64,000 bases of DNA, from assembly GCA_014871385.1 (NCBI GenBank), contig CM026422.1:13808228-13872227 (forward strand). Direction: 5' to 3'. The DNA comes from Ceratodon purpureus (taxonomy: Eukaryota; Streptophyta; Bryopsida; Pseudoditrichales; Ditrichaceae). How positions within the stretch are numbered: position 1 is the stretch's first letter; each line of letters opens with the position of its first letter. The position numbers were made by a program, and so were the translations under genes. The notes under the pieces are model-generated. The model was not told the DNA's origin. It worked only from the letters and a program-made list of their open reading frames with translations, and did not search any database. Below, piece after piece: positions 9,706 through 56,421 of this stretch.

Positions 9706-9714
9706 CCCCGCTCG

Positions 9715-9762
9715 CCTATAAGGCAGTGTCCCCTGCGCAAGCCCATTGCTCTCTCTCTCTCT
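9715..9762 (+). promoter_or_regulatory. Core promoter of left transketolase: TATA box and CT-rich patch
   Basis: CCTATAAGG at 9715-9723 is a good TATA element. It is followed 26 bases later by a (CT)7 tract (9749-9762), a pyrimidine patch typical of plant transcription starts. The 5' leader would be about 130 bases. The right copy has the same elements but (CT)11. Confidence 0.65.
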
Positions 9763-9887
9763 ACTTCGCTGGAACCCGGCCTCTGATTCTAGTTACTCAC
9801 TAGGCGGATTCCGGAGCAGGGGGGCGATCGGTCGAGTGCCAGGGGGGTTGAGGGGAGCCGGGAAGTGGAGGCCAGGGAGCGATCACC

Positions 9888-12800
9888 ATGGCAGCGGCGA
9901 GGTGCAATGTGGCTGCGGTCGCGGGGGCAGTGGCGCCCGCTGCCGTGCGCGGTGCGGCTCAGGTGGAGCGCCTGGGCGCGTCCGTGCAGGGGCTGGGCGT
10001 GAGCAAGTTCGCCGGATTGCGGATTGCTAGCAGGGGCGCGAGCGTGAGCGGCGCCGGGCAGGCGAGGCGGGGCGTGAGCAAGGTGGCGGTGCGCGCGACC
10101 GCCGCCGTGGAGACGGCCCAGAAGACCGATAATGCGGTGGTGGAGAAGTCCGTGAACACCATCCGGTTCCTGGCCATCGACGCCGTGGAGAAGGCGAATT
10201 CCGGGCACCCGGGGCTGCCGATGGGGTGCGCGCCCATGGGACACATCCTGTACGACGAGGTGATGAAGTACAACCCGAAGAACCCGTACTGGTTCAACCG
10301 GGATCGGTTCGTGCTGTCCGCCGGGCACGGTGAGCGAATTGCAGTCCGGTTTTTGGTGGTTGATTGTGGTGGCGCGGTCCGATTGTTGGTGTTGTAGGCC
10401 GATGGGTGTCAATGCGGGGTCGGCGAGCTAGTTTGGAATGTTGGGAACGCATTTGAATTTGGAGTCGCGACGAATTGGTCTAGAGCCCCGAATTGTGTTC
10501 CCGGCGGGTGGTCGGGATGGAGGTTGTGAGGGGCGGGATTGTACTGACGGGGCCGGTGGTGATTGTGTTGGCAGGATGCATGCTGCAGTACGCTCTTCTG
10601 CACCTCGCGGGATACGACAGCGTGTTGGTACGTCTTGTCCAGACCCCTTAACCGCAGATATACTCTCTTGTTGGAATGAAACCAGGCCGTCCTAGGGTGT
10701 CGACGTTAGGACGAACATGTGGGTGGGTGGCTCCTTAGTTGCATGGGAATGGATGGGGATAGCATCCTGTGGCTGGGCGAATTGTTGGGACAGGGGAATC
10801 TATGGGTTCAAATTTGGGGTGCTTCCACGGTGTGTCGTGAATTGCCGATCGATCACCTGTGGAATGTGGATACGGCGGTATTTTCCTCAATCCGAAATAG
10901 AGCTTGGGAGGGGTACATGGACGGGTCATGCGAGTCGACCGTGCGCGCATGTAGAGAGGGTCGCCGGGCCTCGGTCTGAATGTTAGTTTATGGCGCTGAT
11001 ATCTGGCCATGGTTTGTTGTGCAGGAAGAGGACTTGAAGCAGTTCAGGCAGTGGGGCAGCAGGACGCCCGGCCACCCCGAGAACTTTGAGACCCCCGGAG
11101 TGGAGGTGACCACCGGTCCTCTTGGGCAAGGTATTGCCAACGCCGTGGGTTTGGCTCTGGCCGAGGCGCACATGGCCGCCCGCTTCAACAAGCCCGACGC
11201 CAAGATTGTGGACCACTACACGTAAGAAACACATCCTCGTTGTCATTGTGTGTCCGAGAGTGCCGTGGCGATGCCCGAATTGCCAGAGTGCGCATGCGTG
11301 CGCCCCGGTTGTGGACCTCGTAACACGTTCGGTTCACGCATGAGTGGCGGACGCATTCCAGAGGGTGCGTCCCGGAGGATGGTCGTGGTCGGGCGCAGCG
11401 CTTACCGGGTGTAGTGGAATGTGTGTGGATGCAGGTACTGCATTTTGGGAGATGGATGCAACATGGAGGGTATCTCGAACGAGGCCGCGTCGCTGGCAGG
11501 TCACTGGGGGCTCGGGAAGCTCATCTGCTTGTACGACGACAACCACATCTCCATCGACGGAGACACGGAGATCGCCTTCACGGAGAGCGTGGACGCTCGG
11601 TTCGATGCCCTGGGATGGCACACAATCTGGGTGAAGAACGGGAACACCGGGTATGACGAGATCCGCGCCGCCATCGAGGAGGCGAAGTCGGTGACGGACA
11701 GGCCGACGATGATCAAGGTGACGACCACCATCGGATTCGGGTCTCCCAACAAGGCGAATTCGTACTCCGTGCACGGTGCCGCCCTGGGAGGCAAGGAGGT
11801 GGAGGCGACTCGGCAGAACCTGGGCTGGCCCTACGAGCCCTTCCACGTGCCCGACGAGGTCAAGAGGTGAGCTTTGGTGGGGAGACCGCAATGTGTGAGC
11901 AGTCTGTGAGGAGGGGTTATGAGCGAGGGGGCTAGTGTGAGGGAGTAGCTGTCGTGGGATGAATGACGTCGGCGGGAGCTGGGAGGGAGGGAATGATTAA
12001 CAGGAGATCTTGTCTGAATTCGCGCTTGAAATGTTGTGACAGCCACTGGAGCCGCCACATCGATTTGGGAAGCAAGTACCAGAGCGACTGGGAGGCCGCC
12101 GTGGAGGCGTATGCCCAGAAGTACCCCGAGGAGGGCGCGGAGTTCAAGCAGCTGATCAGCGGCGAGTTGCCCGCCGGCTGGGACGCGGCCCTTCCCGTAA
12201 GTGAATGCATCATCGCTGTTTGGTTGATGATGGCAGTCGGATCCACGAGTTTAGCCTGTCGTATGGTGGGGTAGGGGTTTTTGGGAGGGGCGATAGCGGG
12301 TGCATTGGGAGCGCGGTGGGGAGATTGCTAACAGAGCGGTGGTTGGTTGTTGTGGACGAATGCAGGAGTTCACCCCCGAGGACGCTGGTGATGCCACCCG
12401 CAACCTGTCCCAGAGGTGTCTGAACGCCCTGGCAAGGACCCTTCCCGGGTTGATCGGAGGCAGTGCCGATCTGGCGTCGTCGAACATGACGTTGATGAAG
12501 ATGTTCGGGGATTTCCAGAAGAGCACCCCGGCGGAGCGCAATGTGAGGTTCGGAGTGAGGGAGCACGCTATGGGAGCGATCTGCAACGGAATCCAGCAGC
12601 ACTTGGGCGGTCTGATCCCGTACTGCGCGACGTTCTTCATCTTCACGGATTACCTGAGGGCGGCGATGAGGATCTCCGCTCTGTCGGAGACCGGAGTGAT
12701 CTACGTCATGACCCACGACTCGATCGGGCTGGGAGAGGACGGGCCCACGCATCAGCCCATCGAGCACCTGGCGAGTTTCAGGGCCATGCCCAACATGTTG

Positions 12801-13328
12801 ATGCTGAGGCCCGCCGACGGGAACGAGACCTCGGGCGCGTACAAGGTGGCCGTGCTGAACAGGAAGAGGCCGTCGACCCTGGCCCTGTCGAGACAAAAGT
12901 TGCCCAACCTGCCTGGGACGTCGATCGACAACGTGCTGCTGGGTGCGTACGCGATTTCTGACGACTCGAAGGACAACAAGCCGGACGTGATCCTGATGGC
13001 TTCCGGTTCGGAGCTGGAGATCGCCGCCAAGGCTGCAGATGTCCTGAGGGGGGAGGGCAAGACGGTGAAGGTGGTGTCGTTCGTGTGCTGGGAGCTGTTC
13101 GAGGAGCAGAGCGCGGAGTACAAGGAGAAGTTGTTGCCGTCTTCTGTGACGGCCCGTGTGTCGGTGGAGGCCGGTGCTACGTTCGGTTGGGAGAGGTACG
13201 TCGGGCTGGAGGGCAGGGCCATCGGAGTGGACCACTTCGGTGCGAGTGCCCCGGCCAACATCCTGTACAAGGAGTTTGGAATCACCGTGGACAACGTGGT
13301 GGCGAAGGCGAAGGAGGTGATGGCCTGA
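9888..13328 (+). CDS. TKL: Transketolase, chloroplast type, left copy (six exons)
   Basis: Transketolase is a thiamine-diphosphate enzyme that moves two-carbon units between sugar phosphates in the Calvin cycle and the pentose phosphate pathway; the plastid form acts in the stroma. Exons joined at GT-AG borders in consistent phase are 9888-10329, 10575-10627, 11025-11221, 11435-11866, 12043-12196 and 12366-13328, giving 746 residues, the usual length. The Ala/Arg/Val-rich first 75 residues look like a transit peptide. Visible motifs are [10 protein letters not shown], the cofactor site GDGCNMEG (236-243), [18 protein letters not shown] (457-462) and FGVREHAMG with the catalytic Glu at about 492. 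No disabling change is seen. The gene converges on its twin at 31524-34964. Coding exons are very GC-rich compared with the surroundings. Confidence 0.97.
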
Positions 13329-13965
13329 AGGCGGGATAGCATCGAATGAGTGTAGCCGTGGGTGGTGTCTGTTAGTTATTCAGTTGTAGGGGAACGTAAG
13401 CTAGCGACGACGTCTGTAAGCAGAGGGGAGTTCTATTTTTTGGGAGCAATGGAGACTATAAAGTAGCGACAGATCTGGTTGCGTTAGGCAATTCGGCCTT
13501 GGAATGTGTAGACGGCTAAATGTCCTTCGGGTCCTGGAATCGGAGAGATGATAGGGTCGCTGGATGGCTGCTGCCGCATCAGTACCACGGAGCGATAAGA
13601 TGAGCATTGTTTCCGCAATGGACAGGGCCAGGCCCAGGAGTTGATCCTTGGCCTGGTTGCCCACTGGCAAGCTGAGGCATGTATGGTGCCGACAAGTAGG
13701 AGTCTGCTAGCGTGCTGCTTTGCGAAGTTAGAATCCCAGAGCAGGATCATTTTGCAGTAAAAAGTGTGAAATATACGTATTCCTCCATGTACCTTGTACT
13801 GCATGGCACCGTTTGGTCTGCATTGAATAATTTTCGTTGGGTTTGCAAACTTGAAGCGAATGGGTGTCCCATGGTTTCGAGTGAATATGTTCAGTTAGAG
13901 GCCACTGGAGACAGAATGTGTGGTACGAGCAGTGAGTTTTAGGATATGCGCACCCTGGCTCAAAG
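13329..13965 (+). other. Transketolase 3' UTR and downstream DNA, left arm
   Basis: This is the stretch after the stop codon. Open frames on both strands are short and resemble nothing known. It probably contains the 3' UTR; no clear polyadenylation hexamer is placed. The mirror in the right arm is 30887-31523. Confidence 0.4.
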
Positions 13966-14266
13966 CACTTGGACAGGACATCCCCCAGGCTGGGACTTAC
14001 CGAGTGCCACGAGCGTTTTTCGGAGGGGCAGGGTTGATGAGCCCTTAGTTTTTGGTTTTTTATTTTAAAATTCCTAAGGGTGTCCCTCCAAATTAATTTG
14101 GGGCCGCAGGCCCCATTTTTGAATTCAAAATTACCAAAAATGGCCTGGGGAGGTCCAAATTGAAAATTTCATGGTTTTGGGAGGAAAAAGCCAACCAATG
14201 GGAGGGGCTCCTAAAAACGCTCGTAGCACTAGGTAAGTCCCAGCCTGGGGATGTCCTGTCCACGCC
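13966..14266. mobile_element. MULE-like MITE, left arm
   Basis: Inverted ends share GGACAGGACATCCC followed by CAGGCTGGGACTTACC (one end has an extra C), and similarity continues through AGTGC-ACGAGCGTTTTT. The outermost four bases do not match. The nine-base word GGCTCAAAG directly flanks the element at 13957-13965 and 14267-14275. A 9-bp target duplication with long terminal inverted repeats points to the Mutator superfamily. There is no coding capacity. It is present at the same place in the right arm, so it predates the duplication or was copied by conversion. Confidence 0.75.
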
Positions 14267-14275
14267 GGCTCAAAG

Positions 14276-15730
14276 GGTCTGCTGTGGTCGGAGTTGACGA
14301 GGAGTTTCTACTGCCGAACTCGGTTGTGGCACATTTGCTCACCATTGTCTGTTTAGAGGTAATTCGAGACGTGGGTTTCGGGGTTTGACGTCTGGAGTTA
14401 TTTGGACAGCAGGTTTTACCTGACTTGGGTTGTGCTAGTGTTCGGTGAGCCAGCTTGCAGATTTCGTGTCTTAATCTTTCGTTGAAATTGTATCGAGCTG
14501 CTCCGACTCTTGGACACAGAAGTCTGAAACTTGCATCCGTCTGTAATGTAATGGAGTCACTTATAAATTGCACCAATTGCTCTCCCATCTAAATCTTACA
14601 ACATGTTTCAGTTTTAGAACACGTGCTTGACCCATTCTAGCTACCGACACAATGTACTTCGCAAAATACAACACTCATGATCAACTCCCAAAGAACTACA
14701 AGTTCCGTTGGCTCCTTCAACTCCATGATATGCAGGCTAAATGAGGCGCGGTTGCCGCAGGAGTGGTCATGGCAGGAATGATTTTTGCAGGAGTAGCAAA
14801 GTTCTGACGATGATCTTCTACTGTTCTATGAGCAGGCCCTGTAATTCGTGGGGGAGTGCTCTGCTGTGCTCACCGAGCGTGTCAGAGCTTCACCAGCGCC
14901 TCAGAGCTTTGTGAGCCAGAATAGTCGATCGGACCAATTCGTCCAGTTGAGTTTTATCTTCAATGGTCATATCTACGGCACACGATTAACTATGTAAAAC
15001 CGTTGAGCTCTTGATCATTGTAGTATTCTAAAGGTTGCCTGATGATTGGGGGCCTTCAGCCGGGGCAGAGGTGAAGGAAGGTCAAATTAAACTGAAGGCA
15101 GTCAGATTTTATAGATTTGTGGGTGGCGCAATCCCTGTGTTTACCACTGGTAGCCATGAACATCTAATTCGTAATGAGATGCAATTGGTGGCAAGATGGG
15201 GCGAAGTAAATCTAGAGAATGCCGAATAGCGAGGTTCCATATTTGCTCTAGGTGACCCCTTCTATTTCGTAGGTACAATGGCAGCTAGTTAACATGTGCA
15301 TCAGTGCACATTGGTTTATGAGGGGATCAATATAGCTCCGACGTGACGTTGGCTACATATTCAATCACGAGGCGTGACTGCTTTCAAGGAAGCGACAGCC
15401 ATGGGATTCTGCGTGACTCAGGAGTAGGGTCGATTGTCTGTTTTGATGTTAGTCAATGGGACGGGAAAGCTAGAATGGAATGTGTAAGGTGGGAGAAACA
15501 AAGTTTTTCTCAAACCATCCAAGACAAGCTTCAGCTCGTCCGGAATGATCAGTACGTCGCTGTGCGCATGCAGTCTAGCATTGAGTCATAGAGTACGGTA
15601 ACTTGAGTTGAGGTCATTGCGAGATAAAAGGCTTCATGTTTCCCTGACTCGGCACTGGTTGCAAGGTAAGGTGCGCGTGGGACAGACAGGTGGGGAAGGA
15701 GAAGAAATGTAAACGTAAACCAGTTTGATG
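14276..15730. other. Unassigned arm DNA between MITE and U2 cluster
   Basis: No frame with recognisable content. Two of the arm-to-arm mismatches flank or fall in this region (14084 just before, 15231 inside). The right-arm mirror is 29122-30576. Confidence 0.4.
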
Positions 15731-15806
15731 ACAATTGGCCCATAAGGATGTGAGGCAGGTTAGCAGGCTCCGGAGCGTAAGAAGGGTGGGGTGCGGGGGG
15801 AGAGGT
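15731..15806 (+). promoter_or_regulatory. U2a snRNA promoter
   Basis: About 75 bases upstream of U2a align closely with the bases upstream of U2b. GGCCCATAAGGATG occupies the position of the plant snRNA upstream sequence element (consensus RTCCCACATCG, about 70 bases before the start) but is a poorer match than the U2b version. No TATA box lies near -30; TAAGAAGGGTGGGGTGCGG is there instead. Confidence 0.55.
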
Positions 15807-15999
15807 ATACCTTTCTCGGCCTTTTGGCTAAGATCAAGTGTAGTATCTGTTCTTATCAGTTTAATATCTGATACGAGGGACATCGTCCCTCATGATATTA
15901 ATCTAATTTTCCTCGGGTGCGGGTTCCATCTGCCAGCTTGCTGCCTGGTCCCGCGAGAGTCGCCTTGGTGTTGCACTACCTCCATGGCTGGCGCATCCC
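15807..15999 (+). ncRNA. U2: U2 spliceosomal snRNA, copy U2a, left arm
   Basis: The sequence begins ATACCTTTCTCGGCC as in plant U2. It contains the branch-site-pairing GTAGTA within AAGTGTAGTATCTGTTC, the stem-loop IIa CGAGGGACATCGTCCCTC, an Sm-like TCTAATTTTCC, a GC-rich stem-loop III and a terminal stem-loop with TTGCACTACCTCC. Length is about 193 nt, normal for plant U2. U2 pairs with the intron branch point during splicing. The end is placed by homology of the last stem-loop. The antisense frame covering it is not a protein. Confidence 0.95.
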
Positions 16000-16800
16000 T
16001 GTACCTCTGCCCTCCGGTAGGGGTTCCAAACGAAAACCTAAACAGGATCAATTCCTGTCGTTGGATGGGAGCTTTCGTGGGGTGTGCTGTTCTGCACTTT
16101 CAAATCATGGCGTTGAATTCTGACGTGTGGTCTTCGGCATCGAAGTGTGTTGTCTATGTTAGAAACATAATTTGCTATCCTGACGCATAGAACGCTGGGA
16201 AACATGTGGAGCAAAACAAAATCATACCTCTGCTAGTACTCATGCAATATCCTTCCGGGTTATCTGGAAGGAATCATGGTATTGTGACACCATGGGTAAG
16301 ATAGAGGGAGCCTGTTCCTTGTGTCAGTGCATTGGCAACATGAGGCTCTGCCTGTTGCTTCTAATGCATGGAGGAACGTATTGACGTGCCTCAGCTGCAC
16401 TAGGATCAAACGAATTAGTAACTGGCATTATGTGTAACCATTCCTTCTTCGGTTGTGCCAGTATGTATTGCCACATGATTCTTTGCAGTACTGAGCTGCG
16501 GATAGGACAGCTTTCGTTGCAATGGAGCGCGTTGCGGTCATGCGGTCCGAAGGGTAACTTGTGCCTCAGAGTATGTGCTATGCCCCTTGTGCCAAGCATG
16601 AGCAAATGCCTGGACTTCTTGCACAGCTCGCTGCTAATTTGATCCGAGCAGGAAAGTCGCACGCATGCATGAAGCCATTGCCAGTCAGTGCTCGAAATTT
16701 GCAGCAATGCTTTATAAGTTTTGAATCCGAGGAAGCGAGTCTCGGAGGGTGAGTCAAAAGAGGACAGTGAACGCAATTTAAGTTGAACGACGAGGGACCG
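16000..16800. other. Spacer between the two tandem U2 genes, left arm
   Basis: No recognisable gene. The U2 genes start 1072 bases apart. CCAAACGAAAACC, about 30 bases past U2a, corresponds in position to CCAATAGAAACCC past U2b; this shared motif may be the snRNA 3'-end box, though it matches the plant consensus only loosely. A 163-residue antisense frame (16324-16815) overlaps the U2b promoter and has no family resemblance. Confidence 0.4.
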
Positions 16801-16808
16801 TGGAGATT

Positions 16809-16878
16809 GTCCCACAAGGATGGGAGGCAGGTGAGCAGGCTCCGGAGGCTAAGAAGGGTGGGGTGCGGGGGCAGAGGT
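16809..16878 (+). promoter_or_regulatory. U2b snRNA promoter with upstream sequence element
   Basis: GTCCCACAAGG at 16809-16819 matches the first eight positions of the plant snRNA USE (RTCCCACATCG) and starts 70 bases before the U2b start, the expected distance. The -30 position again shows TAAGAAGGGTGGGG rather than a TATA box, the same as in U2a. Confidence 0.65.
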
Positions 16879-17071
16879 ATACCTTTCTCGGCCTTTTGGC
16901 TAAGATCAAGTGTAGTATCTGTTCTTATCAGTTTAATATCTGATACGAGGGACATCGTCCCTCATGATATTAATCTAATTTTTCTCGGGTGCGGGTTCCA
17001 TCCGGCAGCTTGCTGCCCGGACCCGCGAGCGTCGCCTTGGTTTTGCACTACCTCCTCGGCTGGCGCAGCCC
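16879..17071 (+). ncRNA. U2: U2 spliceosomal snRNA, copy U2b, left arm
   Basis: The first half is identical to U2a through the branch-site-pairing region, stem-loop IIa and Sm site. Stem-loop III differs by compensating-looking changes (CCGGCAG-CTGCCCGG against CTGCCAG-CTGCCTGG), and stem-loop IV has CCTCCTCGGCTGG. Length is 193 nt. Its upstream element matches the plant snRNA USE better than that of U2a. Its 3' part plus flank was copied into the spacer at 18717-19006. Confidence 0.95.
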
Positions 17072-17568
17072 TCTCCCTCTTCTGAGGGACCCAATAGAAA
17101 CCCAACCCGCATCAATATTCTTTATAAGATTTCAAGCTGCGTGATGCGAATGACCACTGTCTGGTTGTTTTGCATCCAAGTATCACGACATCCTTCACTA
17201 TTTTTACGTACTGGTGACATACATTTGTTTGGTGAAATGCATAGCTTGAGTATGGCACAGCTCTAATTCGCATGTCGACTTGTTCTTAATGTGGACCTTT
17301 GGCGGTTTCAATGACACTTTCCTGTATTCTGTGGCAGCGAAGTGTCACGGCACACGAGCATGCCAGTGGCATGGGAAGCACTGAATCATGAAGGATGCCC
17401 TGACGATCGTCACAAACTGCGCAGTGTCCTCTCAAGCCGCATCCGCATCATCACAGAAGAGTGTCGCATCCTCATCACTGCCTTGTATCAAATTCTAAGT
17501 TCCTTCTTTTCCACATCTAGTACTAGTAATTCCACTTCATCTCACTTATACATTCATCAAAATTGCAG

Positions 17569-17961
17569 CTCTTCTAGCTGCAGTCCGGAAGGTGTCACTC
17601 AAAGATCTGACAGCAGGAATTGCCAAAGGCTTTGCATCTCCTAGGTATCCAAGAACTTTCATCACAGAATAGAATGTTAAAGGTTTGAAATCAGTTTACC
17701 ACTTGCAGAATAGCTTAATCAATCAAGGAGAGAATTGTGTTTTAGTGACTGCAGGAAGGAAACATTGCAACCTTCTTTATTGAGCACTTTTGTATGACGA
17801 TAATGCTCTTGTTGAATCTGATCCATTTTGACTGCTTCAATACAGTTGGAAGGTACCTATGACAGTTGCTTCGGGCATGAGTGACAAGCATTTGCCCAAG
17901 TCGGAAGCACAGAGCTTCATGAAGAGTAACCTAAGCGTTCTAAAGGCAGCCATGCTTGATG
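17569..17961 (+). CDS. Two exons of an unrecognised gene, left arm
   Basis: Exon 17569-17644 is preceded by CAG and followed by GT; exon 17846-17961 is preceded by ACAG and followed by GT. The reading phase is consistent across the junction (AG|T gives Ser). The peptide contains AAVRKVSLKDLTAGIAKG and then MTVASGMSDKHLPKSEAQ. This looks like genuine protein-coding sequence, but I do not recognise the family. No start or stop is assignable. It may belong to the same broken gene as the zinc-cluster frame at 18525-18716, which continues into the spacer on the right side. It is duplicated exactly in the right arm. Confidence 0.5.
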
Positions 17962-18716
17962 GTACCTTTCCTTTCTTGATATACATTTTGGGGCCTTTCC
18001 TTAGTCTTAGTACACACCAGTGTAAATCCTAGGATTTTAGGTGTGGTGCTAAGGTGGCTACAAAGAATACATTAGAACCAAATTTTTGGCTTCATTAATT
18101 TTTTTTATGAAGAAGTCCTTTGGCGATCCTTGTTTGTTCTTCACTAATTTTAAGCATTATGTAGTATTATGTAACTCGACGCCTCAAGAGTGAGCAATAA
18201 GGCCAACTTGTTGAGGGAATGATGGCTCTATCCAAGTTACCTATTGGGTATTTTCTGGCTTTGACCAACGAGTGATTTAAGGTCTTTGGAGCCAAATATA
18301 GTAAATAGCTATTTTTAAATAGTAAACCTGGATACAACGAACTCGTTTGCACTAGCGGACTGTCTGAGGACGTTATCCAAAGCAATCAAAATTCAATTAT
18401 CTTGTTTTAATTCGTAAATGCTCTTGAAAATTTCAGGCTCAAACTACCTTTTAATACCTCTTTGTAAAGCAAGCTGGTTTTTTTGTTTCATAACATTCTT
18501 TTGCAATTTCAATCATAGGATCTTATAATTAACTCATCAAAAAGTTATTGGAAGGATGTGGAGGACGTCTACAAGCTATTACAAAAAGTAGACAATATAT
18601 TGTATGTCCAATATGTGAGCCAAAGAGAACTTTGGATTACTCTGAGCATTCCAAAGGAATTATGAATTTTTAGTTATGCCAAAAATTTGTGATATCAAGT
18701 ATTGAAGAATTTCATA
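17962..18716 (+). pseudogene. Left-arm end of the degenerate zinc-cluster gene
   Basis: From about 18525 the plus strand reads LLEGCGGRLQAITKSRQ, then a CPIC, SEHSKG, LCQKF arrangement, with an in-frame stop just before LCQKF. The frame is cut at 18716 by the palindrome junction. In the right arm the same frame continues past the junction. The AT-rich DNA before it shows no exon I can support. Confidence 0.5.
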
Positions 18717-19006: not shown

Positions 19007-19008
19007 GT

Positions 19009-23424: not shown

Positions 23425-23495
23425 AATTAATTTATCTAAATTATGAATACATAATTCATAGAATATATAAAGTATTCATGATGAGAATCTCTGGT

Positions 23496-23813: not shown

Positions 23814-23820
23814 TTTTCCC

Positions 23821-23832
23821 GCTCTGATACCA
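23821..23832 (-). other. Copia primer-binding site (initiator tRNA-Met)
   Basis: The minus strand reads TGGTATCAGAGC directly after the LTR end. This is the standard Copia primer site, complementary to the 3' end of initiator methionine tRNA. Confidence 0.95.
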
Positions 23833-24074
23833 TGTTATAATTTACATAGCAACATACTTGTTGAACACGAACACGAAGAAGAAATTATTTCATATATTAT
23901 ATTATATATATTCGATGTTACACATTGTAATGATTGTATTCACCTATTCACCTAATGTCTATAAGTAAGTGTTCATGAACCAAAAGGCATAACCCAAAGG
24001 GTGTGTCCTTAAGACTTGTTATGTAACCTATACTAATCGTTTGTACATACTAATTTGTACATACTATTCTAACA
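23833..24074 (-). repeat. Copia 5' LTR (242 bp)
   Basis: On the minus strand it begins TGTTAGAATAG and ends AATTATAACA, so the TG...CA ends form the perfect short inverted repeat TGTTA/TAACA. It abuts the primer-binding site without a gap. No second copy occurs in the window. Confidence 0.9.
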
Positions 24075-24879
24075 CAAAAACAAGCAAATACTTAAGGATG
24101 TTGGTGAGAAGTTAAAGACCAAGTTGAAAAAACCAGCTATAACATCATCATCTTTTTAATAATCTCTATGTTGCGTACAATTTTTCCCTTTTTAATAACC
24201 TATATCTTGTCCCTTGCTTGTTTGGATGTTGCTTCACCTAATGAGGCTTTGCAAAGTTTTCTTTAGTGTAATGATATATCTTATAGGAATCAAAGAATAA
24301 TATTGTACCTTGTTGAGGTTTAATATATACACGCTATATTAGAAACACTAATTCTCCCCCCTCGACCTACATTGTTTCTAGATTGAAACCACATTATAAA
24401 ACTGTGGAGTGTGTCACATAAATCAATATGAGGAATCACATAATAATTTCTGATTATAGACAATAGTGAAAACGAACTACAGTCTACATCCAACTCTACT
24501 CTAGATGTCTGGTATTATATTCAGATGTAGTGCTTCTAATTCATTCACCCATCATGAAAATTTTGATTGTAGTATTTTAGATATCATTGATGTCCAATTT
24601 GCACCCATTTCATTTATTGATTCCGGAGAAAATTCATTTGTAAGTGTTGCAGACCTTCCTAGATGTGTATATTCTCCAAAATCAAATTTTGCTTCTTGAA
24701 TATACCTTCATCCTAGTAAAACCAAGAGCTTTCTCTTTGGCTAGGGGTTTCAAGTTTTATTTAATTGTGAAGATGCCAAAATAATTAGAAAATGCAAATT
24801 TTTAAAGATATAAAGAGATTGTAAATTTTATTAACAGTTTAAGGAGTAACATATGTAGATTACTATCAATTTATCTTGA
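24075..24879. other. AT-rich spacer DNA between Copia LTR and degenerate gene
   Basis: No exon or RNA gene can be supported. One 64-codon plus-strand frame (24505-24699) has no recognisable content. The stretch is unique to the spacer and not in the arms. Confidence 0.4.
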
Positions 24880-26340
24880 TTATGTACATTTGTTGAATGA
24901 ATTTACTTGATTTTTCTTTATTATATATATATATTTTTTAACTTTCTCTTTATTTAATTGTACTTGTTTAGTAGATTGTAATTCCTCACTATCTTCAACA
25001 ATGTCTCTAATGGACCATAAACTATCTCTATAACTATTTATTTCTTCTGCATTTATTAATTGATTTTTCAATCTTGTGATTAACCATGATTTATTGACCA
25101 AAGCTATACCAATTTTACAATTGTTTTTACTGAAAGTAACTTCATTAATCTAAGAGTACTATGAGTCACATGTTTATTTTTCTAATATATTCCTGCTACA
25201 TTACTTGTTTCCAAAGTATAAAAAAGATGATACAATCCAAAGTTACCTCCATTTGGAAAACCTTGTGTACACCATGTTATGATAAATGATGTCATATCCG
25301 ATTTATCAATATGGGATTGAATGGAAAAAAAATAAAAATTGGAAACATGCATTTGGTGTACATTAGTTTTAAAATTGTCCAATCCTATTGCAACACATCC
25401 AATTGGATAAAATTGTTGGACAAAAAAAGAAGTAACCTGCTTTCCAAATTTTGAAATGTTTGCCCAAATACTTGAGGCAACATTATCTTCCAATCCATGA
25501 TATGCATGTTGGAGTTCCAAACTTAGTTTACTTCTATTATACATAATAATATTGCCTTCTGATTCTTTCCCAGCGTATGCAAAGTATCTATGTTCTTTTG
25601 GCACATATTCCCCTCTTAAAGAATTAGGTTCTTTTGGCACATATTCCCCTCTTAAAGAATTAGGTCTTGTTTTGCCAACATAAGAGACAACCACAAAATA
25701 TGCATTGGCTTCAGTCTTCACTTTGGCATATACTAATCCTTTCAAATAATTTGCGATATAAATTAAAAATATATGTTCAAATAATATATCTTCCAAACTA
25801 TTAATGTTGTTATTAAAAATAGATAATTCATCCAAAATCATCATATTTTGATTAATATATGTCATAACATTACTGTCAGAAAAATGATATTCCCAAGCCT
25901 TTGCATATTTTTGGTCTTTCTAATAAGGCAAAGTTTGAAAAGATTCATCCTCATTTTGTGATTCTAAAGGGATTTTTGAATAATAAATCTGTATATTAGT
26001 AATTTCGTTTAAATCAAATTTTGATTTTAATTCAATTTCCATTTGTGGATTTCCTTTTACTGCACATTGGACCACCATAAAAGGAAAAATTTACATCTTG
26101 TAACGATGTATAAGTTTTGCAACCTAGAAGAATAGTATGAAATTCTTCAATACTTGATATCACAAATTTTTGGCATAACTAAAAATTCATAATTCCTTTG
26201 GAATGCTCAGAGTAATCCAAAGTTCTCTTTGGCTCACATATTGGACATACAATATATTGTCTACTTTTTGTAATAGCTTGTAGACGTCCTCCACATCCTT
26301 CCAATAACTTTTTGATGAGTTAATTATAAGATCCTATGAT
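24880..26340 (-). pseudogene. Degenerate unrecognised gene crossing the right palindrome junction
   Basis: Read on the minus strand, pieces follow each other: a zinc-cluster-like part (CPIC...SEHSKG...LCQKF, about 26330-26136) with one stop; a frame through EIELKSKFDLNEI to a TAG near 25921-25923; a long frame (25182-25865) holding SSIWANISKFGKQVTSFF and CVAIGLDNFKTNVHQMH; and, after an intron or gap, NEVTFSKNNCKIGIALV and NAEEINSYRDSLWSIRD (24880-25150). A 36-bp tandem duplication inside gives PNSLRGEYVPKE twice. I do not recognise the family; a decayed transposon protein is possible. Bases above 26136 are duplicated in the left arm and those below are not. Confidence 0.5.
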
Positions 26341-26890
26341 TGAAATTGCAAAAGAATGTTATGAAACAAAAAAACCAGCTTGCTTTACAAAGAGGTATTA
26401 AAAGGTAGTTTGAGCCTGAAATTTTCAAGAGCATTTACGAATTAAAACAAGATAATTGAATTTTGATTGCTTTGGATAACGTCCTCAGACAGTCCGCTAG
26501 TGCAAACGAGTTCGTTGTATCCAGGTTTACTATTTAAAAATAGCTATTTACTATATTTGGCTCCAAAGACCTTAAATCACTCGTTGGTCAAAGCCAGAAA
26601 ATACCCAATAGGTAACTTGGATAGAGCCATCATTCCCTCAACAAGTTGGCCTTATTGCTCACTCTTGAGGCGTCGAGTTACATAATACTACATAATGCTT
26701 AAAATTAGTGAAGAACAAACAAGGATCGCCAAAGGACTTCTTCATAAAAAAAATTAATGAAGCCAAAAATTTGGTTCTAATGTATTCTTTGTAGCCACCT
26801 TAGCACCACACCTAAAATCCTAGGATTTACACTGGTGTGTACTAAGACTAAGGAAAGGCCCCAAAATGTATATCAAGAAAGGAAAGGTAC

Positions 26891-27283
26891 CATCAAGCAT
26901 GGCTGCCTTTAGAACGCTTAGGTTACTCTTCATGAAGCTCTGTGCTTCCGACTTGGGCAAATGCTTGTCACTCATGCCCGAAGCAACTGTCATAGGTACC
27001 TTCCAACTGTATTGAAGCAGTCAAAATGGATCAGATTCAACAAGAGCATTATCGTCATACAAAAGTGCTCAATAAAGAAGGTTGCAATGTTTCCTTCCTG
27101 CAGTCACTAAAACACAATTCTCTCCTTGATTGATTAAGCTATTCTGCAAGTGGTAAACTGATTTCAAACCTTTAACATTCTATTCTGTGATGAAAGTTCT
27201 TGGATACCTAGGAGATGCAAAGCCTTTGGCAATTCCTGCTGTCAGATCTTTGAGTGACACCTTCCGGACTGCAGCTAGAAGAG
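26891..27283 (-). CDS. Two exons of an unrecognised gene, right arm
   Basis: This is an exact mirror of 17569-17961 (exons 27208-27283 and 26891-27006 on the minus strand). It lies upstream of, and in the same direction as, the degenerate gene at 24880-26340, so the two may once have been one transcription unit. Confidence 0.5.
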
Positions 27284-27780
27284 CTGCAATTTTGATGAAT
27301 GTATAAGTGAGATGAAGTGGAATTACTAGTACTAGATGTGGAAAAGAAGGAACTTAGAATTTGATACAAGGCAGTGATGAGGATGCGACACTCTTCTGTG
27401 ATGATGCGGATGCGGCTTGAGAGGACACTGCGCAGTTTGTGACGATCGTCAGGGCATCCTTCATGATTCAGTGCTTCCCATGCCACTGGCATGCTCGTGT
27501 GCCGTGACACTTCGCTGCCACAGAATACAGGAAAGTGTCATTGAAACCGCCAAAGGTCCACATTAAGAACAAGTCGACATGCGAATTAGAGCTGTGCCAT
27601 ACTCAAGCTATGCATTTCACCAAACAAATGTATGTCACCAGTACGTAAAAATAGTGAAGGATGTCGTGATACTTGGATGCAAAACAACCAGACAGTGGTC
27701 ATTCGCATCACGCAGCTTGAAATCTTATAAAGAATATTGATGCGGGTTGGGTTTCTATTGGGTCCCTCAGAAGAGGGAGA

Positions 27781-27973
27781 GGGCTGCGCCAGCCGAGGAG
27801 GTAGTGCAAAACCAAGGCGACGCTCGCGGGTCCGGGCAGCAAGCTGCCGGATGGAACCCGCACCCGAGAAAAATTAGATTAATATCATGAGGGACGATGT
27901 CCCTCGTATCAGATATTAAACTGATAAGAACAGATACTACACTTGATCTTAGCCAAAAGGCCGAGAAAGGTAT
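27781..27973 (-). ncRNA. U2: U2 spliceosomal snRNA, copy U2b, right arm
   Basis: Mirror of 16879-17071 with no difference found. The USE-like promoter element lies at 28033-28043. The plus-strand frame beginning at 27897 is the antisense reading of this RNA. Confidence 0.95.
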
Positions 27974-28852
27974 ACCTCTGCCCCCGCACCCCACCCTTCT
28001 TAGCCTCCGGAGCCTGCTCACCTGCCTCCCATCCTTGTGGGACAATCTCCACGGTCCCTCGTCGTTCAACTTAAATTGCGTTCACTGTCCTCTTTTGACT
28101 CACCCTCCGAGACTCGCTTCCTCGGATTCAAAACTTATAAAGCATTGCTGCAAATTTCGAGCACTGACTGGCAATGGCTTCATGCATGCGTGCGACTTTC
28201 CTGCTCGGATCAAATTAGCAGCGAGCTGTGCAAGAAGTCCAGGCATTTGCTCATGCTTGGCACAAGGGGCATAGCACATACTCTGAGGCACAAGTTACCC
28301 TTCGGACCGCATGACCGCAACGCGCTCCATTGCAACGAAAGCTGTCCTATCCGCAGCTCAGTACTGCAAAGAATCATGTGGCAATACATACTGGCACAAC
28401 CGAAGAAGGAATGGTTACACATAATGCCAGTTACTAATTCGTTTGATCCTAGTGCAGCTGAGGCACGTCAATACGTTCCTCCATGCATTAGAAGCAACAG
28501 GCAGAGCCTCATGTTGCCAATGCACTGACACAAGGAACAGGCTCCCTCTATCTTACCCATGGTGTCACAATACCATGATTCCTTCCAGATAACCCGGAAG
28601 GATATTGCATGAGTACTAGCAGAGGTATGATTTTGTTTTGCTCCACATGTTTCCCAGCGTTCTATGCGTCAGGATAGCAAATTATGTTTCTAACATAGAC
28701 AACACACTTCGATGCCGAAGACCACACGTCAGAATTCAACGCCATGATTTGAAAGTGCAGAACAGCACACCCCACGAAAGCTCCCATCCAACGACAGGAA
28801 TTGATCCTGTTTAGGTTTTCGTTTGGAACCCCTACCGGAGGGCAGAGGTACA

Positions 28853-29045
28853 GGGATGCGCCAGCCATGGAGGTAGTGCAACACCAAGGCGACTCTCGCG
28901 GGACCAGGCAGCAAGCTGGCAGATGGAACCCGCACCCGAGGAAAATTAGATTAATATCATGAGGGACGATGTCCCTCGTATCAGATATTAAACTGATAAG
29001 AACAGATACTACACTTGATCTTAGCCAAAAGGCCGAGAAAGGTAT
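28853..29045 (-). ncRNA. U2: U2 spliceosomal snRNA, copy U2a, right arm
   Basis: Mirror of 15807-15999 with no difference found. Together with 27781-27973 it makes a tandem pair on the minus strand, converging on the left-arm pair. Confidence 0.95.
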
Positions 29046-29121
29046 ACCTCTCCCCCCGCACCCCACCCTTCTTACGCTCCGGAGCCTGCTAACCTGCCTC
29101 ACATCCTTATGGGCCAATTGT

Positions 29122-30576
29122 CATCAAACTGGTTTACGTTTACATTTCTTCTCCTTCCCCACCTGTCTGTCCCACGCGCACCTTACCTTGCAACCAGTGC
29201 CGAGTCAGGGAAACATGAAGCCTTTTATCTCGCAATGACCTCAACTCAAGTTACCGTACTCTATGACTCAATGCTAGACTGCATGCGCACAGCGACGTAC
29301 TGATCATTCCGGACGAGCTGAAGCTTGTCTTGGATGGTTTGAGAAAAACTTTGTTTCTCCCACCTTACACATTCCATTCTAGCTTTCCCGTCCCATTGAC
29401 TAACATCAAAACAGACAATCGACCCTACTCCTGAGTCACGCAGAATCCCATGGCTGTCGCTTCCTTGAAAGCAGTCACGCCTCGTGATTGAATATGTAGC
29501 CAACGTCACGTCGGAGCTATATTGATCCCCTCATAAACCAATGTGCACTGATGCACATGTTAACTAGCTGCCATTGTACCTACGAAATAGAAGGGGTCAC
29601 CTAGAGCAAATATGGAACCTTGCTATTCGGCATTCTCTAGATTTACTTCGCCCCATCTTGCCACCAATTGCATCTCATTACGAATTAGATGTTCATGGCT
29701 ACCAGTGGTAAACACAGGGATTGCGCCACCCACAAATCTATAAAATCTGACTGCCTTCAGTTTAATTTGACCTTCCTTCACCTCTGCCCCGGCTGAAGGC
29801 CCCCAATCATCAGGCAACCTTTAGAATACTACAATGATCAAGAGCTCAACGGTTTTACATAGTTAATCGTGTGCCGTAGATATGACCATTGAAGATAAAA
29901 CTCAACTGGACGAATTGGTCCGATCGACTATTCTGGCTCACAAAGCTCTGAGGCGCTGGTGAAGCTCTGACACGCTCGGTGAGCACAGCAGAGCACTCCC
30001 CCACGAATTACAGGGCCTGCTCATAGAACAGTAGAAGATCATCGTCAGAACTTTGCTACTCCTGCAAAAATCATTCCTGCCATGACCACTCCTGCGGCAA
30101 CCGCGCCTCATTTAGCCTGCATATCATGGAGTTGAAGGAGCCAACGGAACTTGTAGTTCTTTGGGAGTTGATCATGAGTGTTGTATTTTGCGAAGTACAT
30201 TGTGTCGGTAGCTAGAATGGGTCAAGCACGTGTTCTAAAACTGAAACATGTTGTAAGATTTAGATGGGAGAGCAATTGGTGCAATTTATAAGTGACTCCA
30301 TTACATTACAGACGGATGCAAGTTTCAGACTTCTGTGTCCAAGAGTCGGAGCAGCTCGATACAATTTCAACGAAAGATTAAGACACGAAATCTGCAAGCT
30401 GGCTCACCGAACACTAGCACAACCCAAGTCAGGTAAAACCTGCTGTCCAAATAACTCCAGACGTCAAACCCCGAAACCCACGTCTCGAATTACCTCTAAA
30501 CAGACAATGGTGAGCAAATGTGCCACAACCGAGTTCGGCAGTAGAAACTCCTCGTCAACTCCGACCACAGCAGACC
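29122..30576. other. Unassigned arm DNA, right arm
   Basis: Mirror of 14276-15730; no gene seen. It contains the mismatch at 29621 (T on the plus strand; its partner 15231 is G). Confidence 0.4.
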
Positions 30577-30585
30577 CTTTGAGCC

Positions 30586-30886
30586 GGCGTGGACAGGACA
30601 TCCCCAGGCTGGGACTTACCTAGTGCTACGAGCGTTTTTAGGAGCCCCTCCCATTGGTTGGCTTTTTCCTCCCAAAACCATGAAATTTTCAATTTGGACC
30701 TCCCCAGGCCATTTTTGGTAATTTTGAATTCAAAAATGGGGCCTGCGGCCCCAAATTAATTTGGAGGAACACCCTTAGGAATTTTAAAATAAAAAACCAA
30801 AAACTAAGGGCTCATCAACCCTGCCCCTCCGAAAAACGCTCGTGGCACTCGGTAAGTCCCAGCCTGGGGGATGTCCTGTCCAAGTG
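30586..30886. mobile_element. MULE-like MITE, right arm
   Basis: Mirror of 13966-14266 including the 9-bp flanking duplication (here CTTTGAGCC at 30577-30585 and 30887-30895). One internal substitution separates the two copies (30768 against 14084). Confidence 0.75.
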
Positions 30887-31523
30887 CTTTGAGCCAGGGT
30901 GCGCATATCCTAAAACTCACTGCTCGTACCACACATTCTGTCTCCAGTGGCCTCTAACTGAACATATTCACTCGAAACCATGGGACACCCATTCGCTTCA
31001 AGTTTGCAAACCCAACGAAAATTATTCAATGCAGACCAAACGGTGCCATGCAGTACAAGGTACATGGAGGAATACGTATATTTCACACTTTTTACTGCAA
31101 AATGATCCTGCTCTGGGATTCTAACTTCGCAAAGCAGCACGCTAGCAGACTCCTACTTGTCGGCACCATACATGCCTCAGCTTGCCAGTGGGCAACCAGG
31201 CCAAGGATCAACTCCTGGGCCTGGCCCTGTCCATTGCGGAAACAATGCTCATCTTATCGCTCCGTGGTACTGATGCGGCAGCAGCCATCCAGCGACCCTA
31301 TCATCTCTCCGATTCCAGGACCCGAAGGACATTTAGCCGTCTACACATTCCAAGGCCGAATTGCCTAACGCAACCAGATCTGTCGCTACTTTATAGTCTC
31401 CATTGCTCCCAAAAAATAGAACTCCCCTCTGCTTACAGACGTCGTCGCTAGCTTACGTTCCCCTACAACTGAATAACTAACAGACACCACCCACGGCTAC
31501 ACTCATTCGATGCTATCCCGCCT
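30887..31523 (-). other. Transketolase 3' UTR and downstream DNA, right arm
   Basis: Mirror of 13329-13965; no gene seen beyond the likely 3' UTR of the right transketolase copy. Confidence 0.4.
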
Positions 31524-34500
31524 TCAGGCCATCACCTCCTTCGCCTTCGCCACCACGTTGTCCACGGTGATTCCAAACTCCTTGTACAGGATGTTGGCCG
31601 GGGCACTCGCACCGAAGTGGTCCACTCCGATGGCCCTGCCCTCCAGCCCGACGTACCTCTCCCAACCGAACGTAGCACCGGCCTCCACCGACACACGGGC
31701 CGTCACAGAAGACGGCAACAACTTCTCCTTGTACTCCGCGCTCTGCTCCTCGAACAGCTCCCAGCACACGAACGACACCACCTTCACCGTCTTGCCCTCC
31801 CCCCTCAGGACATCTGCAGCCTTGGCGGCGATCTCCAGCTCCGAACCGGAAGCCATCAGGATCACGTCCGGCTTGTTGTCCTTCGAGTCGTCAGAAATCG
31901 CGTACGCACCCAGCAGCACGTTGTCGATCGACGTCCCAGGCAGGTTGGGCAACTTTTGTCTCGACAGGGCCAGGGTCGACGGCCTCTTCCTGTTCAGCAC
32001 GGCCACCTTGTACGCGCCCGAGGTCTCGTTCCCGTCGGCGGGCCTCAGCATCAACATGTTGGGCATGGCCCTGAAACTCGCCAGGTGCTCGATGGGCTGA
32101 TGCGTGGGCCCGTCCTCTCCCAGCCCGATCGAGTCGTGGGTCATGACGTAGATCACTCCGGTCTCCGACAGAGCGGAGATCCTCATCGCCGCCCTCAGGT
32201 AATCCGTGAAGATGAAGAACGTCGCGCAGTACGGGATCAGACCGCCCAAGTGCTGCTGGATTCCGTTGCAGATCGCTCCCATAGCGTGCTCCCTCACTCC
32301 GAACCTCACATTGCGCTCCGCCGGGGTGCTCTTCTGGAAATCCCCGAACATCTTCATCAACGTCATGTTCGACGACGCCAGATCGGCACTGCCTCCGATC
32401 AACCCGGGAAGGGTCCTTGCCAGGGCGTTCAGACACCTCTGGGACAGGTTGCGGGTGGCATCACCAGCGTCCTCGGGGGTGAACTCCTGCATTCGTCCAC
32501 AACAACCAACCACCGCTCTGTTAGCAATCTCCCCACCGCGCTCCCAATGCACCCGCTATCGCCCCTCCCAAAAACCCCTACCCCACCATACGACAGGCTA
32601 AACTCGTGGATCCGACTGCCATCATCAACCAAACAGCGATGATGCATTCACTTACGGGAAGGGCCGCGTCCCAGCCGGCGGGCAACTCGCCGCTGATCAG
32701 CTGCTTGAACTCCGCGCCCTCCTCGGGGTACTTCTGGGCATACGCCTCCACGGCGGCCTCCCAGTCGCTCTGGTACTTGCTTCCCAAATCGATGTGGCGG
32801 CTCCAGTGGCTGTCACAACATTTCAAGCGCGAATTCAGACAAGATCTCCTGTTAATCATTCCCTCCCTCCCAGCTCCCGCCGACGTCATTCATCCCACGA
32901 CAGCTACTCCCTCACACTAGCCCCCTCGCTCATAACCCCTCCTCACAGACTGCTCACACATTGCGGTCTCCCCACCAAAGCTCACCTCTTGACCTCGTCG
33001 GGCACGTGGAAGGGCTCGTAGGGCCAGCCCAGGTTCTGCCGAGTCGCCTCCACCTCCTTGCCTCCCAGGGCGGCACCGTGCACGGAGTACGAATTCGCCT
33101 TGTTGGGAGACCCGAATCCGATGGTGGTCGTCACCTTGATCATCGTCGGCCTGTCCGTCACCGACTTCGCCTCCTCGATGGCGGCGCGGATCTCGTCATA
33201 CCCGGTGTTCCCGTTCTTCACCCAGATTGTGTGCCATCCCAGGGCATCGAACCGAGCGTCCACGCTCTCCGTGAAGGCGATCTCCGTGTCTCCGTCGATG
33301 GAGATGTGGTTGTCGTCGTACAAGCAGATGAGCTTCCCGAGCCCCCAGTGACCTGCCAGCGACGCGGCCTCGTTCGAGATACCCTCCATGTTGCATCCAT
33401 CTCCCAAAATGCAGTACCTGCATCCACACACATTCCACTACACCCGGTAAGCGCTGCGCCCGACCACGACCATCCTCCGGGACGCACCCTCTGGAATGCG
33501 TCCGCCACTCATGCGTGAACCGAACGTGTTACGAGGTCCACAACCGGGGCGCACGCATGCGCACTCTGGCAATTCGGGCATCGCCACGGCACTCTCGGAC
33601 ACACAATGACAACGAGGATGTGTTTCTTACGTGTAGTGGTCCACAATCTTGGCGTCGGGCTTGTTGAAGCGGGCGGCCATGTGCGCCTCGGCCAGAGCCA
33701 AACCCACGGCGTTGGCAATACCTTGCCCAAGAGGACCGGTGGTCACCTCCACTCCGGGGGTCTCAAAGTTCTCGGGGTGGCCGGGCGTCCTGCTGCCCCA
33801 CTGCCTGAACTGCTTCAAGTCCTCTTCCTGCACAACAAACCATGGCCAGATATCAGCGCCATAAACTAACATTCAGACCGAGGCCCGGCGACCCTCTCTA
33901 CATGCGCGCACGGTCGACTCGCATGACCCGTCCATGTACCCCTCCCAAGCTCTATTTCGGATTGAGGAAAATACCGCCGTATCCACATTCCACAGGTGAT
34001 CGATCGGCAATTCACGACACACCGTGGAAGCACCCCAAATTTGAACCCATAGATTCCCCTGTCCCAACAATTCGCCCAGCCACAGGATGCTATCCCCATC
34101 CATTCCCATGCAACTAAGGAGCCACCCACCCACATGTTCGTCCTAACGTCGACACCCTAGGACGGCCTGGTTTCATTCCAACAAGAGAGTATATCTGCGG
34201 TTAAGGGGTCTGGACAAGACGTACCAACACGCTGTCGTATCCCGCGAGGTGCAGAAGAGCGTACTGCAGCATGCATCCTGCCAACACAATCACCACCGGC
34301 CCCGTCAGTACAATCCCGCCCCTCACAACCTCCATCCCGACCACCCGCCGGGAACACAATTCGGGGCTCTAGACCAATTCGTCGCGACTCCAAATTCAAA
34401 TGCGTTCCCAACATTCCAAACTAGCTCGCCGACCCCGCATTGACACCCATCGGCCTACAACACCAACAATCGGACCGCGCCACCACAATCAACCACCAAA

Positions 34501-34964
34501 AACCGGACTGCAATTCGCTCACCGTGCCCGGCGGACAGCACGAACCGATCCCGGTTGAACCAGTACGGGTTCTTCGGGTTGTACTTCATCACCTCGTCGT
34601 ACAGGATGTGTCCCATGGGCGCGCACCCCATCGGCAGCCCCGGGTGCCCGGAATTCGCCTTCTCCACGGCGTCGATGGCCAGGAACCGGATGGTGTTCAC
34701 GGACTTCTCCACCACCGCATTATCGGTCTTCTGGGCCGTCTCCACGGCGGCGGTCGCGCGCACCGCCACCTTGCTCACGCCCCGCCTCGCCTGCCCGGCG
34801 CCGCTCACGCTCGCACCCCTGCTAGCAATCCGCAATCCGGCGAACTTGCTCACGCCCAGCCCCTGCACGGACGCGCCCAGGCGCTCCACCTGAGCCGCAC
34901 CGCGCACGGCAGCGGGCGCCACTGCCCCCGCGACCGCAGCCACATTGCACCTCGCCGCTGCCAT
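31524..34964 (-). CDS. TKL: Transketolase, chloroplast type, right copy (six exons)
   Basis: Exons on the minus strand are 34523-34964, 34225-34277, 33631-33827, 32986-33417, 32656-32809 and 31524-32486. The predicted 746-residue protein is the same as that of the left copy; the one coding difference found (34815) is silent. All splice sites and cofactor and catalytic motifs are kept. Four substitutions lie just before the start codon and the distal promoter is strongly diverged, so the two genes encode one enzyme but may be expressed differently. Large antisense frames over exon 6 are shadows of its GC-rich codon use. Confidence 0.97.
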
Positions 34965-35089
34965 GGTGATCGGTCCCTGGCGTGCACTCCCCGGCTCCCC
35001 TCAACCCCCCTGGCACTCGACCGATCGCCCCCCTGCTCCGGAATCCGCCTAGTGAGTAACTAGAATCAGAGGCCGGGTTCCAGCGAAGT

Positions 35090-35145
35090 AGAGAGAGAGA
35101 GAGAGAGAGAGCAATGGGCTTGCGCAGGGGACGCTGCCTTATAGG
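35090..35145 (-). promoter_or_regulatory. Core promoter of right transketolase
   Basis: On the minus strand CCTATAAGG (35137-35145) precedes a (CT)11 tract, four repeat units longer than in the left copy. Identity with the left copy is otherwise high to 35154 and falls sharply beyond it. Confidence 0.65.
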
Positions 35146-35154
35146 CGAGCGGGG

Positions 35155-47271: not shown

Positions 47272-47333
47272 CATTAATTAATTAATGCAGGGGTGGGGAG
47301 GGGAGCGGGGTACGTGGCGTAGCTAGGGCGGTC

Positions 47334-50353: not shown

Positions 50354-56421
<6,068 letters not shown>

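What the first reader, a model, noticed from the sequence alone, without database searches (positions are those of the whole stretch)
9706..35154. Giant near-perfect palindrome carrying two intact transketolases and four U2 genes
Seen: two 9.0-kb arms in mirror order with constant coordinate sum 44852, no indel over about 8.95 kb and fewer than ten mismatches found, separated by a 7.4-kb spacer. Known: long palindromes with almost identical arms are typical of sex chromosomes and other non-recombining regions, where intrachromosomal conversion preserves genes. Inference: this could be such a structure in a bryophyte (possibly a U/V chromosome) or a recent inverted duplication raising the dosage of a Calvin-cycle enzyme and U2.
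Basis: partly seen in the sequence, partly recalled or inferred. Interest (0 to 1): 0.9.

Follow-up and report, generated by a model that had tools for sequence, protein, structure and literature searches.

The report
Moss autosomal palindrome of identical genes
A moss chromosome carries two near-identical 9-kb mirror-image copies of a photosynthesis gene and two splicing-RNA genes, probably kept alike by one copy overwriting the other, and the same mirror layout recurs around several other multicopy genes in this genome.

Summary
The palindrome is real: arms 9705-18716 and 26136-35155 align over 9,020 columns at 99.8% around a 7.4-kb spacer. Both transketolases are intact, encode the same 746-aa protein and differ at one synonymous base. 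There are four full U2 genes, plus a truncated fifth at the left inner junction.

The sex-chromosome idea is not supported: the window lies on a 26.6-Mb contig; the chromosome of Ceratodon U/V size is another one, 110.5 Mb.

I favour an old inverted duplication whose arms are kept alike by gene conversion. Just outside the arms the two promoters are homologous but strongly diverged (132 of 165 aligned bases plus 42 gap columns), while the core differs at 2 of 8,679 bases. The last copying probably ran right to left: a repeat continuous across the right inner edge is cut on the left.

Nine other inverted pairs whose letters I read (U2, U5, LHC, RbcS; chosen as likely candidates) are all palindromes, 95-100% identical. 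Cytochrome P450 genes show no equal-score inverted pair. A published moss precedent exists (Physcomitrella Hsp16.4).

The parts
9705..18716 (+). left palindrome arm
   Evidence: blastn self-comparison; mirror comparison
26136..35155 (-). right palindrome arm
9888..13328 (+). transketolase gene, left copy; six exons 9888-10329, 10575-10627, 11025-11221, 11435-11866, 12043-12196, 12366-13328; 746 aa, N-terminal extension read as a chloroplast transit peptide
   Evidence: hand-built GT-AG model, open throughout; Pfam transketolase domains; closest solved relatives 1itz and 8ci0
31524..34964 (-). transketolase gene, right copy; protein identical to the left
   Evidence: mirror of the left model
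15807..16001 (+). U2 snRNA gene a, left
   Evidence: Rfam RF00004, 161.4 bits
16879..17073 (+). U2 snRNA gene b, left
   Evidence: Rfam RF00004, 173 bits
27779..27973 (-). U2 snRNA gene b, right
   Evidence: Rfam, 173 bits
28851..29045 (-). U2 snRNA gene a, right
   Evidence: Rfam, 161.4 bits
18716..19010 (+). 5'-truncated U2 remnant with about 130 bp of 3' flank, joined to the left arm with a one-base overlap
   Evidence: 98.3% to 16906-17203; junction letters
19012..24075 (-). Ty1/copia-type retrotransposon; 5' LTR 23833-24075; no 3' LTR found
   Evidence: Pfam gag, integrase and RT domains; primer-binding site at 23832; LTR extent from other copies
24075..26285 (.). dispersed transposon-like repeat(s): about 650 bp end segment 24075-24724, then 24719-26285, which runs across the right inner arm edge
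18567..18716 (.). the last 150 bp of the same repeat in the left arm, cut off at the junction
   Evidence: mirror of 26136-26285
9512..9704 (+). left transketolase promoter region, diverged homologue of the right one
35156..35340 (-). right transketolase promoter region, diverged homologue of the left one

Best explanation
An autosomal palindrome in a moss, most likely Ceratodon purpureus. An old inverted duplication left a transketolase-U2-U2 block on both sides, genes pointing inward. Outside the arms the two copies have drifted until only promoter elements are recognisable. Inside, homologous recombination between the inverted copies has overwritten one with the other (gene conversion), most recently over up to 9 kb and probably from right to left. 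At the outer edge the copying ended in shared promoter/leader sequence; at the inner edge it ended without homology, inside a transposon-like repeat, and was joined to a remnant of a U2 gene. Shown: near-identity inside, abrupt divergence outside, the repeat continuous on the right and cut on the left, and the same architecture at other loci. Inferred: conversion as the process, one tract or several, its direction, and that selection for dosage or uniform product retains such pairs.
For: Outer flanks homologous in mirror register but diverged (132/165 aligned bases, 42 gap columns; local score 90 against a maximum of 38 in 600 control segments), found nowhere else in the genome search, and neither block found in the fetched region of the C5 paralogue. 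Core of the arms 2 differences in 8,679 bases; 5 of 7 substitutions in the outermost 289 bp. Seven copies of a dispersed repeat elsewhere match across the right inner edge. Other palindromes in the genome range from 95 to 100%, and in one the identity is uneven along the arm (39/1622 against 10/1451 mismatches, Fisher P 1e-4, split chosen after seeing the profile). Moss precedents.
Against: No second species, isolate or reads, so conversion was not seen directly. The diverged stretch is only about 190 bp; strong change in a promoter could exaggerate its age. The U2 remnant is 98.3% like U2b, which suits an older tandem copy as well as a leftover of the former left arm. The left inner junction could be a later deletion rather than the end of a copied tract. 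Same-strand copies can also be identical here (LHC, 658 bp at 100%), so homogenisation is not limited to inverted partners.
Confidence: 0.7

Rival explanations
1. A single recent inverted segmental duplication of the 9-kb block with no conversion; the identity only reflects youth.
For: Arms nearly free of differences over their length; abrupt inner ends with a one-base overlap look like a break-repair junction; the tandem U2 remnant could have existed before.
Against: It does not explain why both outer flanks carry homologous but strongly diverged transketolase promoter sequence found only at these two places, nor why 5 of 7 substitutions sit in the outermost 289 bp.
Confidence: 0.22
2. An assembly artefact (falsely duplicated or folded-back sequence).
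For: No reads available; a published assembly can contain false duplications.
Against: The two inner junctions differ, the outer flanks are homologous but diverged, the arms differ at 8 bases and one 8-bp indel, and nine further inverted pairs show the same architecture at varied identity.
Confidence: 0.05
3. A palindrome of a non-recombining U or V chromosome.
For: Same architecture as sex-chromosome palindromes of mammals and willow (abstracts in the listing).
Against: The window lies on C2 (26.6 Mb); the chromosome of U/V size is C6 at 110.5 Mb. Of 149 scored U1, U2, U4 and U5 matches none is on C6 (one U4 match there below the cut-off, left out).
Confidence: 0.02

Closest known systems
Physcomitrella patens PpHsp16.4a/b pair (PMC4228350, passages seen)
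   Same: Moss nuclear genes, 100% identical, tail-to-tail, 7,725 bp between stop codons, identity extending through 700 bp of promoter.
   Different: One stress gene per side; the authors propose recent tandem duplication and inversion; here the arm holds three genes, ends near the promoter, and has diverged homologous flanks.
Tandemly arrayed genes of Physcomitrella attributed to gene conversion (PMC3045890, passage seen, citing Lang et al. 2008, not seen)
   Same: Near-identical neighbouring copies in a moss, explained by concerted evolution.
   Different: The passage does not describe inverted arms, spacers or snRNA genes.
Gene-bearing palindromes of mammalian X/Y and willow W chromosomes (abstracts in the listing, e.g. 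PMC3723533, PMC8981503, PMC7023750)
   Same: Inverted gene-bearing arms above 99% identical around a unique spacer.
   Different: Here on an autosome-sized chromosome of a haploid-dominant plant, with housekeeping and photosynthesis genes.

Membership tests
Gene-conversion palindrome (sex-chromosome type) | Inverted arms above 99% identical, kilobases long, around a unique spacer | tested here: met
   99.823% over 9,020 columns; 7.4-kb spacer
Gene-conversion palindrome (sex-chromosome type) | Arms carry intact genes | tested here: met
   transketolase open in both arms; U2 genes over the cut-off
Gene-conversion palindrome (sex-chromosome type) | Lies in a non-recombining sex-linked region | tested here: not met
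   window on C2, not on the 110.5-Mb C6; species and autosome status inferred from sizes
Gene-conversion palindrome (sex-chromosome type) | Arms more alike within a genome than between species, or variants shared between arms in a population | not testable with these tools
   no second moss genome or isolate; indirect signs only
Moss tail-to-tail identical gene pair (Hsp16.4 type) | Convergent, near-identical neighbouring genes several kb apart on a moss chromosome | tested here: met
   transketolases convergent, one synonymous difference
Moss tail-to-tail identical gene pair (Hsp16.4 type) | Identity extends through the proximal promoter (700 bp in Hsp16.4) | tested here: not met
   near-identity ends at about the TATA-like block, 9705
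Ty1/copia element in the spacer | gag, integrase, RVT_2 in copia order with tRNA-type primer-binding site | tested here: met
Ty1/copia element in the spacer | Two LTRs | tested here: not met
   5' LTR only; the other end abuts the U2 remnant

The most novel reading that the evidence does not exclude
In this moss, and perhaps in mosses generally, autosomal palindromes are a common way of keeping uniform copies of high-output gene families (U1, U2, U5, light-harvesting proteins, RuBisCO small subunit, transketolase). Inverted pairs cannot be lost by simple deletion between direct repeats and can overwrite each other in a highly recombining haploid genome, doing on autosomes what palindromes do on the human Y.
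Probability: 0.35. Interest if true: 0.7.

Novelty: new member of a known kind. Interest (0 to 1): 0.55.

Why it matters
Gene-bearing palindromes are usually discussed as a remedy for chromosomes that cannot recombine. Finding them repeatedly on autosome-sized chromosomes of a haploid-dominant plant, around genes needed in bulk, suggests another reason to keep them: uniform high dosage through concerted evolution. The two transketolases here encode one protein but have different upstream promoter sequence, so they are also a natural test of expression divergence under forced coding identity.

Tried and rejected
Sex-chromosome reading: rejected by contig identity. A first guess of Sphagnum (note) was dropped when C6 proved to be 110.5 Mb. 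An apparent rule that all inverted snRNA pairs converge (note) was rejected: U5, U4, LHC, RbcS and histone pairs also diverge. The idea that every family forms such pairs was rejected: among 91 P450 rows (22 lower-scoring of 113 matches left out) neighbours within 50 kb are 8 same-strand, 0 convergent, 3 divergent, and no inverted pair has equal scores (the hand-picked 18 rows are superseded). The control was faulty (some segments overlapped the query) and was redone. The U2 remnant as a retro-copy of the RNA was rejected because it carries about 130 bp of 3' flanking DNA. Paper searches for a description of moss palindromes or palindromic snRNA genes led only to the two Physcomitrella leads cited, as far as the listings show. 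The Ceratodon 2021, P. patens 2018 and P. patens 2008 genome papers were asked for by DOI and are not held. PMC6521618 was searched for inverted-repeat recombination in P. patens without use.

Limits of the counts: scored/candidates were U2 40/110, U1 42/6515 (42), U5 47/25830 (64), U4 41/24237 with 20 over the cut-off (66), LHC 109/109 (68), P450 92/382 (80), RbcS 44/44 (83), histone 52/52 (89), so the capped ones are lower bounds. From LHC I used the top 32 of 85 rows; the rest hold more inverted equal-score pairs and also same-strand runs, uncounted. From RbcS 26 of 41 rows (one per gene), from histones 21 of 30. Equal bit score stands in for identity and was checked by letters at nine loci only.

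Full report
WHAT IS THERE. The inverted repeat is real: 9705-18716 against 35155-26136, 9,020 columns at 99.823%, with 7 substitutions in the 8,968 bases from 9749 to 18716 at constant coordinate sum 44852. Each arm carries a six-exon gene for a 746-residue transketolase; the two proteins are identical and the coding sequences differ by one synonymous base (Pfam; closest solved relatives 1itz and the chloroplastic 8ci0). Each arm also carries two U2 snRNA genes. Genes point inward. A third transketolase lies on C5 with matching exon stretches 73-85% identical; a 2.3-kb query found these three loci only.

SPACER AND INNER JUNCTIONS. From right to left the 7.4-kb spacer holds a dispersed transposon-like repeat (24075-26135), a Ty1/copia element (24075 down to 19012) with a 5' LTR but no 3' LTR, and a 5'-truncated U2 with about 130 bp of 3' flank that is joined to the left arm with a one-base overlap. 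Seven copies of the repeat elsewhere (87-90% identical) match across the right arm edge 26135/26136, six of them as far as 26280-26285. The left arm holds only the last 150 bp of it (18567-18716) before the U2 remnant. I read the right side as the original and the left inner junction as the derived break; a later deletion on the left is not excluded.

OUTER JUNCTIONS. Outside the arms the sequences do not become unrelated at once. 9512-9704 aligns with 35340-35156 in mirror register at 132 of 165 bases with 42 gap columns, including a perfect block of about 30 bases; 9705-9748 aligns at 43 of 44 with an 8-base gap and a TATA-like block. The local score is 90 against a maximum of 38 in 600 control segments. 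In the genome search this sequence occurs only at these two places, and neither block was found in the 9.9-kb region fetched around the C5 paralogue. Farther out nothing stands out (score 32). Five of the seven substitutions lie in the outermost 289 of 8,968 bases (P = 7e-7 if uniform). The simplest account is an old inverted pair whose inside was overwritten later.

WHERE IT IS. The window is C2:13808228-13872227 of a 362.5-Mb assembly in 151 contigs. C1 to C13 are 16.5-29.0 Mb except C6, 110,524,308 bases; C14 and C15 are below 0.2 Mb. A paper gives Ceratodon purpureus U and V assemblies of 110.5 and 112.2 Mb (PMC9273592, passage). I infer Ceratodon purpureus and an autosome; the species was not proved by sequence.

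IT IS NOT ALONE. A U2 query showed many copies in inverted pairs of equal score. Counting neighbours there, eight convergent U2 pairs lie outside the window; I read letters for six of these eight, and for one LHC, one RbcS and one U5 pair. All nine are palindromes: C9 8.86 Mb (2.3 kb, 2 mismatches), C3 4.36 Mb (at least 3.3 kb, 97.4-99.4%), C1 5.83 Mb (1.76 kb, none); C1 7.19 Mb (at least 1.6 kb, none), C4 6.03 Mb (at least 3.1 kb, none), C4 6.07 Mb (at least 3.1 kb, 95.2-98.9%); LHC on C4, two genes per arm (at least 5,977 bp, 1 mismatch), RbcS on C9 (2,083 bp, 4 mismatches), U5 on C11, two genes per arm (2,632 bp, 10 mismatches). They were chosen because they looked like mirror pairs, so nine of nine is not a random sample; N stretches were left out. 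One same-strand U1 pair read as a contrast shares 260 bp at 95%. Against a strict inverted-only rule, the two same-strand LHC genes of one arm share 658 bp at 100%. Without letters, three U5 loci (one of them the C11 locus read above) and one LHC locus (likewise) show two gene pairs with exactly the same coordinate sum.

COUNTS. Neighbours within 50 kb (same strand/convergent/divergent): U2 4/9/3 of 40 matches, U1 9/6/0 of 42, U5 9/6/2 of 47, U4 2/0/1 of 20, LHC 7/3/3 of 32, RbcS 8/4/4 of 26, histone 1/0/3 of 21; in sum 40 same-strand and 44 inverted. P450, as a contrast, 8/0/3 of 91 with no equal-score inverted pair. For comparison, 72-94% of tandem genes in vertebrates are parallel (PMC2547482, abstract in the listing). 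So near-identical inverted pairs mark several multicopy families but same-strand copies are also common, and orientation is mixed. None of the 149 U1, U2, U4 and U5 matches is on C6, about 30% of the assembly; 2 of 32 LHC and 1 of 21 histone matches are.

MECHANISM. Shown: identity inside, divergence outside, a repeat cut on the left, recurrence. Inferred: repair of a break in the left copy using the inverted right copy, ending in homology at the promoter side and by end joining at the U2 side. Whether one long tract or several made the present arms is open. The U2 remnant, 98.3% like U2b, may be a leftover of the earlier left copy or an older tandem copy. In another palindrome the mismatch rate differs along the arm (39/1622 against 10/1451), as patchy conversion would give. 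Mosses have high meiotic recombination (PMC9946827, section 6 read); similar tandem genes in Physcomitrella have been attributed to conversion (PMC3045890, passage); a tail-to-tail pair of 100% identical genes is published (PMC4228350, passages). That inverted pairs outlast direct ones because they cannot be deleted by simple recombination is general knowledge applied here, not tested.

VERDICT. Observation confirmed. Sex-chromosome interpretation not supported. Conversion supported indirectly. The locus is a new member of a known kind; the recurring autosomal pattern is the more interesting lead and needs a whole-genome self-alignment and a second moss genome.

Noticed in passing
window 43235-43347 (-): A U5 snRNA gene (92.4 bits) about 8 kb outside the right arm, with no mirror partner in the window.
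   Followed up: partly
window 3203-6237 and 47235-50370: A repeated element of about 3 kb in two copies, largely inverted to each other (85-91% over the longer pieces), on either side of the palindrome but not centred on it; probably two insertions of one transposon family.
   Followed up: no
window 46523-46662 and 56414-56532: Two short self-complementary elements (140 bp at 96%, about 119 bp at 88%), MITE-like in look.
   Followed up: no
window 40849-41994 (+) and 60129-61286 (+): A protein-kinase-like frame and an F-box-like frame (Pfam).
   Followed up: no
G000:C4:6014000-6078000: A cluster of U1 and U2 genes with two U2 palindromes about 25 kb apart and a same-strand relative (L028) 90-93% like one of them: several palindromes side by side.
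   Followed up: partly
G000:C11:7839523-9438979: Three U5 palindromes on one chromosome, two divergent and one convergent, each with two gene pairs of exactly equal coordinate sum.
   Followed up: partly
G000:C4:5111321-5190422: An inverted pair of a weaker LHC-family match with two exons mirrored to the base, 78 kb apart (rows): possibly a much larger palindrome.
   Followed up: no
G000 U4 genes: U4 genes are mostly dispersed yet have equal scores on many chromosomes (11 of 20 at 107.9 or 107.2-108.1 in several places), so palindromes cannot be the only way copies stay alike.
   Followed up: no
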